This document shows, piece by piece, positions 8,443 to 53,425 of a stretch of DNA of 64,000 bases. The notes under the pieces were generated by a model, which saw only the letters and a list, made by a program, of their open reading frames with translations, did not search any database and was not told the origin of the DNA. Position numbers and translations under genes: made by a program. Each line of letters starts with the position of its first letter. Positions within the stretch are counted from its first letter, which is position 1. The stretch lies in NCBI GenBank assembly GCA_027943885.1, contig AP027078.1:248001-312000 (forward strand), read 5' to 3'. Origin of the DNA: Candidatus Tyloplasma litorale (GTDB lineage: Bacteria; Bacillota_I; Bacilli_A; Mycoplasmatales; Hepatoplasmataceae).

Positions 8443-8448
8443 TATAAT
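8443..8448 (+). promoter_or_regulatory. -10 box of the metK transcription unit
   Basis: TATAAT preceded by a T-rich tract and TGTA; transcription would begin near 8455, giving a leader of about 200 bases before metK. Confidence 0.5.
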
Positions 8449-8452
8449 TAAT

Positions 8453-8624
8453 TAGAAACTTATTTCGAGTGTTCTAGGTTAATCCCAAGGAGAACACACC
8501 AACCTATCGTTTTGAAAAAGGTGGTTAGATGAGGCTTTTTAAAAGTAACAATAAGACTTTAATTTAAAGAACTCAAGCTATCAATTTAATAGTTGGAGTT
8601 TTTTTAATATAAAATAAGTTTCTA
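8453..8624 (+). promoter_or_regulatory. Structured metK leader with intrinsic terminator (candidate SAM-responsive riboswitch)
   Basis: A possible aptamer has P1 CTTATTT (8459-8465) pairing with AGATGAG (8527-8533), a perfect 7-bp P2 GTGTTCT/AGAACAC (8469-8475/8491-8497), and P3 ACC..CC/GG.GGT (8498-8504/8520-8525). The P2 loop AGGTT (8476-8480) could pair with AACCT (8501-8505). A terminator follows: a 12-bp stem with one mismatch (8570-8581/8589-8600) and a T run to 8606. The P1 5' strand region (8453-8465) is also perfectly complementary over 13 bases to 8612-8624, just before the metK ribosome-binding site. The CTTAT...GAG...CAACC...GGTG...AGATGAG order recalls the S-box (SAM-I) class, but conserved core elements are missing. 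The ligand is inferred from the downstream gene. Confidence 0.5.
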
Positions 8625-8652
8625 TTAGTAATAATTAAGGAGAAATAATAAT

Positions 8653-9633
8653 ATGGAAATAAATAATGAAACAATAGAATTAGTTGGTTATGGTCATGCT
8701 GATAGATTTTCAGACTATCTAGGTGAATTAATTTTAGAAAAAAATCTTGAACAAGATCCAAATGCAAAAGTTGCTTTAGAGGTTTTAGCAACTGGTAAAA
8801 CAATTTCTTTAGGAGGAGAAATAACTTCTGATGCAAATATAGATTATGAAGAATTAGTTTATTTTGCTATTGAAAAAATTTATGGTGAAAAATGATGACC
8901 CAATTTTAGGCAAAATGTAAAAATATACAATCATATAGTTGAACAATCAATAGAATTAAAGGAAATTCAAAATGAAGATCAGGAAATAAAAGCTGGAGAT
9001 CAAGGAGTGATTTATGGATTTTATGATAAAGAAAGATTTGAAAAAATTAAAAAATTATATAAATTAATGGAGAAAGTTAGAGAGAATTTTGATATTGCTC
9101 CTGATTGAAAATTATTATATAATGAAAAAGAAATTTCAATGTCTGTTTGTGGAAAAGTTAATCATTCTTCAATTAAAAAATTTATTGAAAAAGAATTAAA
9201 TAATAAAAAAACAAATGTAATTATTAATCCTAAAGGTGAGTGATTAATAGCTGGTCCTTTAGGTGATACAGGTGTTATAGGTAGAAAATTAATGATTGAT
9301 ACATTTGGAGCTGGCATCCCTCATGGAGGAGGAGCCTTTTGTGGTAAAGATCTTTCCAAAGTTGATAAAACAGGTATTTTATGAGCTACAAAAATAGCCA
9401 AAAAATATAGTATTGCAAATAAAATTAATACTGTCATAGTTGAATTAAATTTTAAAATAGGTGATAATCATCCTAAAATTTTTATTAATAATGAAGAAAT
9501 AGAAATTTCAAAACTTAATTTAATTAATTTAAGTTTGGATCAATTTATTAAAACAGAAAATTTAATTAATGAAAAATGATCTAAACATGTAATTAAAGGT
9601 AGTTCAGTTTTATCTTGATTAGAAGAACTTTAA
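8653..9633 (+). CDS. metK: S-adenosylmethionine synthetase, compact divergent form
   Basis: The protein is 326 residues, about 60 shorter than typical MetK. It makes S-adenosylmethionine from methionine and ATP for RNA and other methylations. Signatures in order: GHADR (residues 14-18, family GHPDK), GGEIT near 56, AGDQG near 115, [12 protein letters not shown] near 201 and the phosphate-binding [15 protein letters not shown] near 225-239. The catalytic His and the first metal-binding Asp are kept, while Pro and Lys of GHPDK are changed to Ala and Arg. The shortening is spread through the central and C-terminal parts. AAGGAGAA lies 9 bases before the ATG. An attenuator-like leader precedes it, so it is probably regulated by feedback. 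Confidence 0.88.
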
Positions 9634-53337: not shown

Positions 53338-53425
53338 ATTATTACCTCCATAGACTCGCCTTAATAGGTGGTTTATCTCTTAAGAACCTATTAAAGTGCG
53401 GTTGCTGTGATAATATAATTATCAC
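53338..53425 (-). promoter_or_regulatory. L21 ribosomal protein leader
   Basis: On the minus strand the leader has CTTTAATAGGT/ACCTATTAAGG (plus 53362-53372 and 53386-53396 region) closing an AAGAGATAAACC-type loop, followed by GCGAGTCTATGGAGGT before the rplU start. This agrees with the L21 leader element known upstream of rplU in Firmicutes, thought to mediate feedback by a ribosomal protein. Recognition is from the pattern and position, not a covariance search. Confidence 0.65.

What the first reader, a model, noticed from the sequence alone, without database searches (positions are those of the whole stretch)
8453..8624. Structured metK leader with terminator: a possible SAM-responsive riboswitch in a mollicute
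The leader has a 7-bp P1, a perfect 7-bp P2, a short P3 and a possible loop pseudoknot, then a U-tailed terminator directly before metK. The order of elements echoes S-box RNA (CTTAT, GAG, CAACC, GGTG, AGATGAG), but the full SAM-I core is not there, so it is either a reduced S-box or a different class. GAG at the 3' side of P1 can pair with CTC of the terminator arm, giving an antiterminator. Also, 13 bases including the P1 5' strand are perfectly complementary to bases just before the metK ribosome-binding site, so a second level of control is possible.
Basis: partly seen in the sequence, partly recalled or inferred. Interest (0 to 1): 0.62.

Follow-up and report, generated by a model that had tools for sequence, protein, structure and literature searches.

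The report
SAM riboswitch with two-stage metK control
The RNA in front of the SAM-making gene of an isopod gut mollicute is a divergent SAM-sensing switch with a stop hairpin and, behind it, a probable second switch in which the RNA's own 5' end frees the ribosome-binding site; the same two-part design recurs in other mollicutes.

Summary
The genome is Candidatus Tyloplasma litorale (615,622 bp). Window 8454-8652 is a metK leader with a SAM-clan aptamer: Rfam SAM-I/IV gives 39.1 bits (cut-off 41.1), and a model built from 38 other mollicute S-box leaders, without the window, gives 45.4 bits (E 6.9e-7 genome-wide). The positions that never vary in those leaders are all kept, so 'the full SAM-I core is not there' is wrong.

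The RNA 5' end (8453-8465) is perfectly complementary to 8612-8624, between the terminator and the Shine-Dalgarno (SD) sequence. A genus mate has an 18-bp helix at the same place with compensated changes. The pairing is partner-specific in three mollicute families and absent in Spiroplasma-like leaders. The same downstream segment folds over the SD when the 5' end is unavailable.

Best reading: SAM ends transcription and, in read-through mRNA, ties up the 5' P1 strand so that the SD is hidden. P1-based riboswitches are usually described as switching with the 3' strand. Nothing was tested at the bench.

The parts
8443..8448 (+). TATAAT -10-like box; inferred RNA start at 8454-8455
   Evidence: sequence; start site inferred, not measured
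8453..8465 (+). RNA 5' end = 5' strand of the long-range helix; contains the P1 5' strand
   Evidence: 13/13 complementary to 8612-8624
8459..8465 (+). P1 5' strand (CUUAUUU), with A6-U7 equivalents at 8462-8463
8467..8468 (+). J1/2 core G11-A12 equivalents
   Evidence: invariant columns of the mollicute alignment
8469..8497 (+). P2: 8469-8475/8491-8497, without a recognisable kink-turn
8479..8484 (+). L2 candidate pseudoknot strand UUAAUC (partner 8528-8533)
   Evidence: 5/6 pairs; genus mate has UGUUGA/UCAACA 6/6 at the same place (read by eye)
8499..8524 (+). P3 with the SAM-pocket bases CAACC and GGUGG
8527..8533 (+). AGAUGAG: P1 3' strand in register (i), or PK-1 strand in register (ii); also antiterminator strand
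8534..8546 (+). Short A+U hairpin: P4 (register ii) or SAM-IV-like hairpin outside P1 (register i)
   Evidence: similar hairpin in genus mate
8550..8555 (+). AAUAAG: P1 3' strand in register (ii)
   Evidence: AACAAUAAGAC motif shared with mollicute S-boxes
8566..8580 (+). Antiterminator 3' side: AAAG 8566-8569, CUCA 8572-8575, CUA 8578-8580
   Evidence: fold series
8566..8604 (+). Intrinsic terminator hairpin and U-run
   Evidence: -11.5 kcal/mol
8612..8624 (+). Anti-P1 segment: pairs with the RNA 5' end (ON) or, through 8618-8629, with the SD region (OFF)
8618..8646 (+). SD-covering hairpin GUUUCU-A-UUAGU / AUUAA-GG-AGAAAU
   Evidence: fold of the region after the aptamer alone
8637..8642 (+). 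Shine-Dalgarno AAGGAG
8653..9633 (+). metK, code 4, 326 aa, divergent Hepatoplasma type
   Evidence: Pfam S-AdoMet_synt_N and _C; 56-58% identical to Hepatoplasma MetK

Best explanation
It is a SAM-sensing OFF switch of the SAM-I/SAM-IV clan on metK, with two stages in series. Stage 1: SAM holds the aptamer (P1, P2, P3) closed, GAUGAG cannot reach CUCA, and the terminator at 8566-8604 stops transcription; without SAM the antiterminator forms and polymerase reads on. Stage 2, in read-through mRNA: if the aptamer is empty, the 5' end including the P1 5' strand pairs with 8612-8624, which leaves the SD free; if SAM closes P1, 8612-8624 is released and folds over the SD. Shown by computation: aptamer homology, terminator and antiterminator folds, the two mutually exclusive pairings, and covariation of the long-range helix in relatives. 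Inferred: SAM as ligand, the start site, and any effect on transcription or translation.
For: Aptamer: RF01725 39.1 bits, E 2.1e-5 genome-wide; mollicute model built without the window 45.4 bits, E 6.9e-7 genome-wide. P1-P3 covary over 57 leaders: 90.8% of cells paired against 69.2% shuffled, covariation score 0.56 against 0.18, and at most 0.13 for slid versions. metK downstream in the window and in most relatives by sequence. Stage 1: fold series. Stage 2: 13/13 complement, reached by 4 of 20,000 shuffles; genus mate G009 18 bp at the same place, with 4 two-sided and 3 one-sided pair-keeping differences from the window over 13 positions; own pair beats 70/70 foreign partners in both directions in the window and in G009; mean fractional rank 0.007 in genus g14, 0.044 in g20, 0.064 in g42, against 0.55-0.60 in Spiroplasma-like g31 and in f9. 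Modelled SD accessibility .50 to .96 (window).49 to .99 (G009).08 to .97 (L072), median .06 to .71 in family f6. In 15 of 18 such leaders the SD pairs with bases of the anti-P1 segment when the 5' end is absent.
Against: The Rfam score is just under the RF01725 cut-off, and RF00162 finds nothing in this genome at E <= 10. The window's SD hairpin is weak: two G of AAGGAG sit in a bulge and the SD is only half closed. The long-range helix is modelled as more stable than aptamer plus SD hairpin (-41.1 against about -35), so stage 2 needs ligand and tertiary energy, or slow kinetics, to be reversible. With 20 coding bases added, the 5' helix probability in the window falls to 0.71. The P1 register is unresolved. 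Ligand binding is untested.
Confidence: 0.68

Rival explanations
1. Same SAM riboswitch and terminator, but the 5'-end helix stabilises or locks read-through mRNA (base-paired 5' end, aptamer kept open) and does not regulate translation.
For: The helix starts at the inferred RNA 5' end in the window and in G009; it forms only after the terminator; it is stronger than the alternative; the window's SD hairpin is weak.
Against: In 15 of 18 leaders the partner of the 5' end is also the partner of the SD, which a plain stabiliser does not need. Family f6 metK leaders with only 30-57 nt between aptamer and start show the same arrangement.
Confidence: 0.2
2. Plain SAM-I/IV-like terminator riboswitch in the reader's P1 register; the downstream complement is a chance by-product of A+T-rich sequence.
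For: RF01725 aligns in this register; thermodynamic weight 0.75 against 0.19 at 8560; its P1 3' strand is the antiterminator strand, as in standard S-boxes.
Against: The 13/13 match is rare, recurs with different sequence in the genus mate and is partner-specific in three mollicute families.
Confidence: 0.09
3. The aptamer has changed its ligand, as spermidine-sensing SAM-I variants have.
For: Such variants exist, some on metK (PMC10853860).
Against: Those variants change bases in J1/2 and in the P3 internal loop; the window keeps G-A of J1/2 and the CAACC/GGUG pocket.
Confidence: 0.03

Closest known systems
SAM-I (S-box) riboswitch, RF00162
   Same: P1/P2/P3 core, invariant pocket bases, terminator/antiterminator OFF logic, metK target; mollicute S-boxes are the nearest relatives (model R1, 45.4 bits)
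   Different: No RF00162 match in this genome; no clear P2 kink-turn; PK-1 weak; two P1 registers; extra SD switch run by the 5' strand of P1
SAM-I/IV variant, RF01725
   Same: Single uninterrupted P2, no clear PK-1, hairpin 3' of P1 in register (i); 39.1 bits
   Different: 2 bits under the gathering score; J3/1 shortened by 4 positions; relatives in the same genus and family are SAM-I-like, not SAM-I/IV
SAM-IV, cryo-EM description in PMC6890682
   Same: Hairpin outside P1 (register i) and a possible L3 to 3'-tail pairing (GUUUUG with UAAGAC, by eye)
   Different: No clear P2a/P2b with PK-1; the L3 pairing was not tested statistically
Translational SAM-I of Xanthomonas campestris (PMC7270179)
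   Same: SAM-I aptamer that controls SD access
   Different: There an anti-SD stem in the expression platform and uncharged tRNA-fMet act; here the RNA 5' end is the proposed release strand and a terminator comes first
P1-switched riboswitches in general (review PMC11477058)
   Same: P1 helix is the switch
   Different: The review defines them by the 3' strand of P1 in the competing structure; here stage 2 uses the 5' strand

Membership tests
SAM-I (RF00162) | Rfam score at or above gathering (44.4) | tested here: not met
   no match at E <= 10 in own genome
SAM-I (RF00162) | Conserved core: A6-U88/U7-A87, G11-A12, CAACC, GGUG | tested here: met
   invariant columns of 38 mollicute S-boxes present; aligned by R1
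SAM-I (RF00162) | P4 between P3 and the 3' strand of P1 | tested here: inconclusive
   present in register (ii), outside P1 in register (i)
SAM-I (RF00162) | Kink-turn in P2 | tested here: not met
   P2a followed by a 1-nt/4-nt loop and a 2-bp P2b; no tandem GA pairs seen by eye. Also missing in some mollicute S-boxes (family f9)
SAM-I (RF00162) | PK-1 (L2 with J3/4) | tested here: inconclusive
   UUAAUC/GAUGAG 5 of 6; genus mate 6 of 6 at the same position (by eye)
SAM-I/IV (RF01725) | Rfam score at or above gathering (41.1) | tested here: not met
   39.1 bits
SAM-I/IV (RF01725) | P2 without internal loop, PK-1 absent (PMC2864571, PMC6890682) | tested here: inconclusive
   7-bp uninterrupted P2a, but possible P2b and PK-1
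SAM-I/IV (RF01725) | Hairpin 3' of P1 | tested here: inconclusive
   only in register (i)
SAM clan (superfamily of the above) | Shared SAM-binding core of P1, P2, P3 before a SAM-pathway gene | tested here: met
SAM clan (superfamily of the above) | Binds SAM | not testable with these tools
   needs in-line probing or ITC
Transcription-terminating OFF riboswitch | Mutually exclusive antiterminator and terminator | tested here: met
   fold series only; no transcription assay

The most novel reading that the evidence does not exclude
In mollicutes, and now and then elsewhere in Bacilli, S-box leaders carry a translational switch in which the 5' strand of P1 (the RNA's own 5' end, whose J1/2 AAGAG resembles an SD) is the anti-anti-SD strand. 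In some, including the window, it stands behind a transcription terminator, so one aptamer controls two steps of expression through its two P1 strands.
Probability: 0.45. Interest if true: 0.7.

Novelty: new variant of a known kind. Interest (0 to 1): 0.55.

Why it matters
P1-regulated riboswitches are usually described as working through the 3' strand of P1. Here the 5' strand has a conserved, covarying partner next to the SD, so one aptamer could gate transcription and then translation of the same mRNA. That would show how a very small genome gets tight control of SAM synthesis from one RNA, and would mean that expression platforms read from the 3' side alone are read incompletely. It also shows that some mollicute metK leaders sit just under Rfam thresholds and are missed by standard annotation.

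Tried and rejected
Rejected: a new riboswitch class (the core aligns to known models). Rejected: that SAM riboswitches are foreign to mollicutes (RF00162 in 55 of 320 genomes of the order; model R1 in 71). Rejected: a leader shared with Hepatoplasma metK; those four genomes have the nearest MetK but no such leader. Left open: choice of P1 register; PK-2-like pairing of L3 with 8552-8557. A set of 95 leaders from other Bacilli was meant as a negative control and was not fully negative: 22 of 95 have fractional rank <= 0.05 (about 5 expected), with 5 of 6 in family f20, so the arrangement is not confined to mollicutes; in some of these the match overlaps the terminator. Literature searches found no description of a 5'-strand SD switch in S-boxes, but the library lacks most subscription journals and ten queries are few.

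Full report
What is there. The window lies in a 615,622-base single-contig genome. That length and the family (nearest named MetK hits are Candidatus Hepatoplasma) match Candidatus Tyloplasma litorale, AP027078.1 (PMC10928387). The ORF at 8653-9633 in code 4 is MetK by the Pfam N- and C-terminal domains. The leader runs from a TATAAT box at 8443-8448 to the ATG at 8653; the RNA start at 8454-8455 is inferred.

The aptamer. At the curated Rfam thresholds nothing is reported for the leader. With the permissive threshold 8455-8562 matches SAM-I-IV (RF01725) at 39.1 bits, cut-off 41.1, E 7e-5 in 501 bases and 2.1e-5 genome-wide, the only match in the genome. RF00162 finds nothing in this genome at E <= 10, although it finds S-boxes in 55 of 320 genomes of the order, among them the genus mate G009 (44.3 bits) and the family mate G007 (34.5 bits), in both cases directly before metK. 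I built a covariance model, R1, from 38 of these mollicute aptamers, without the window. It scores the window 45.4 bits, E 6.9e-7 genome-wide. On 57 leaders aligned to R1, 90.8% of pair cells are standard against 69.2% in shuffles, the covariation score is 0.56 against 0.18, and slid versions reach at most 0.13; the alignment is fitted to that structure, which favours it. The ten positions invariant in the 38 leaders are all kept in the window.

Two registers of P1. R1 pairs CUUAUU with AAUAAG (8550-8555), which puts the hairpin inside as P4, as in SAM-I. For the first: ensemble weight 0.75 against 0.19 at 8560, and its 3' strand is the antiterminator strand. For the second: the AACAAUAAGAC motif is shared with other mollicute S-boxes, G009 has an 8-bp P1 only in that register (by eye), and GAUGAG then falls where G009 has its pseudoknot strand. 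I lean to the second, about 60 to 40, and do not file the RNA in either Rfam family; it is a member of the SAM clan with its class unresolved.

Stage 1. In a series of folds of growing transcripts, P1 dominates up to 8560, an antiterminator (UAG/CUA, UGAG/CUCA, CUUU/AAAG) dominates from 8575 to 8590, and the terminator from 8600 on. This is the usual S-box OFF logic. It is a thermodynamic calculation, without ligand or kinetics.

Stage 2. This is exact (8453-8465 with 8612-8624); 4 of 20,000 dinucleotide shuffles and 2 of 5,000 random placements reach it. In G009 the same two places form 18 continuous pairs. Over the 13 window positions the two genomes differ at 4 pairs on both sides and at 3 on one side, and every pair is kept. 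I then compared each leader's 5' segment with its own pre-start segment and with those of other genera. Own pairs win over all 70 foreign partners in both directions for the window and for G009; mean fractional ranks are 0.007 in genus g14, 0.044 in g20 and 0.064 in g42, but 0.55 in the Spiroplasma-like g31 and 0.60 in g47. In g42 the match often overlaps the terminator. Ten f6 leaders (L103-L112) were found only after the hypothesis had been formed, so they are a partial held-out test; of these, four reach p <= 0.01 against shuffles, six p < 0.05, and four do not.

Why a translational switch. When the part after the aptamer is folded alone, the SD is paired with bases of the anti-P1 segment in 15 of 18 leaders of this kind. 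When the whole leader is folded, the 5' end takes that segment and the SD is free in most of them: modelled SD accessibility goes from .50 to .96 in the window.49 to .99 in G009.08 to .97 in L072, and from a median of .06 to .71 in family f6; there is no such change in f7 or f9. In f6 metK leaders only 30-57 nt separate aptamer and start, so there the switch may be the only stage. The window's own SD hairpin is weak, which keeps the lock or stabiliser reading open.

How far it reaches. In 95 leaders from other Bacilli 22 have own pairs ranked in the top 5% (about 5 expected), most consistently family f20 (5 of 6). So this is neither universal nor restricted to mollicutes. I did not map terminators in that set, and in several cases the match overlaps the terminator.

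Literature. The SAM-I/IV variant was described mainly from metagenomes as lacking the internal loop of P2 (PMC2864571). A structure paper says SAM-I/IV has an undivided P2 and lacks PK-1 (PMC6890682). A 2024 review defines P1-regulated riboswitches by the 3' strand of P1 forming the competing structure (PMC11477058). A translational SAM-I is known in Xanthomonas, by another mechanism (PMC7270179). I found no account of the 5' strand acting on the SD in S-boxes within the held library; the search was limited. The T. tengcongensis numbering of pocket bases used here is from my own knowledge of the SAM-I structure.

Verdict. A known kind of riboswitch in an unusual variant, missed by standard thresholds, with a probable second, translational stage operated by the 5' strand of P1. 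The aptamer and terminator are close to certain as sequence features; the second stage rests on covariation and folding and awaits a reporter test.

Noticed in passing
53342-53413 (-): Ribosomal protein L21 leader (RF00559), 46.7 bits, the only Rfam match over threshold in the window.
   Followed up: no
8653-9633: MetK is of a divergent type, 56-58% identical to Hepatoplasma MetK but only 36% to that of the genus mate G009; Pfam shows no middle domain. Hepatoplasma has this MetK without the leader, G009 has the leader with a standard MetK, so the gene may have been replaced under a kept riboswitch.
   Followed up: partly
L072, L013, L014, L015, L016, L017, L043, L071: S-box leaders in families f6 and f8 stand before genes that do not look like metK (proteins of about 130-390 aa, not identified); G094 has three S-box leaders.
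   Followed up: no
L020, L024, L028, L029 (family f8): The complement of the P1 5' strand and J1/2 lies in the loop and 3' arm of the terminator, which suggests an antiterminator made by the 5' side of the aptamer.
   Followed up: partly
L139, L141, L142, L144, L174 (other Bacilli, family f20): The same 5'-end complement before the SD, outside the mollicute order; in L139, L141, L142 and L144 it follows the terminator.
   Followed up: partly
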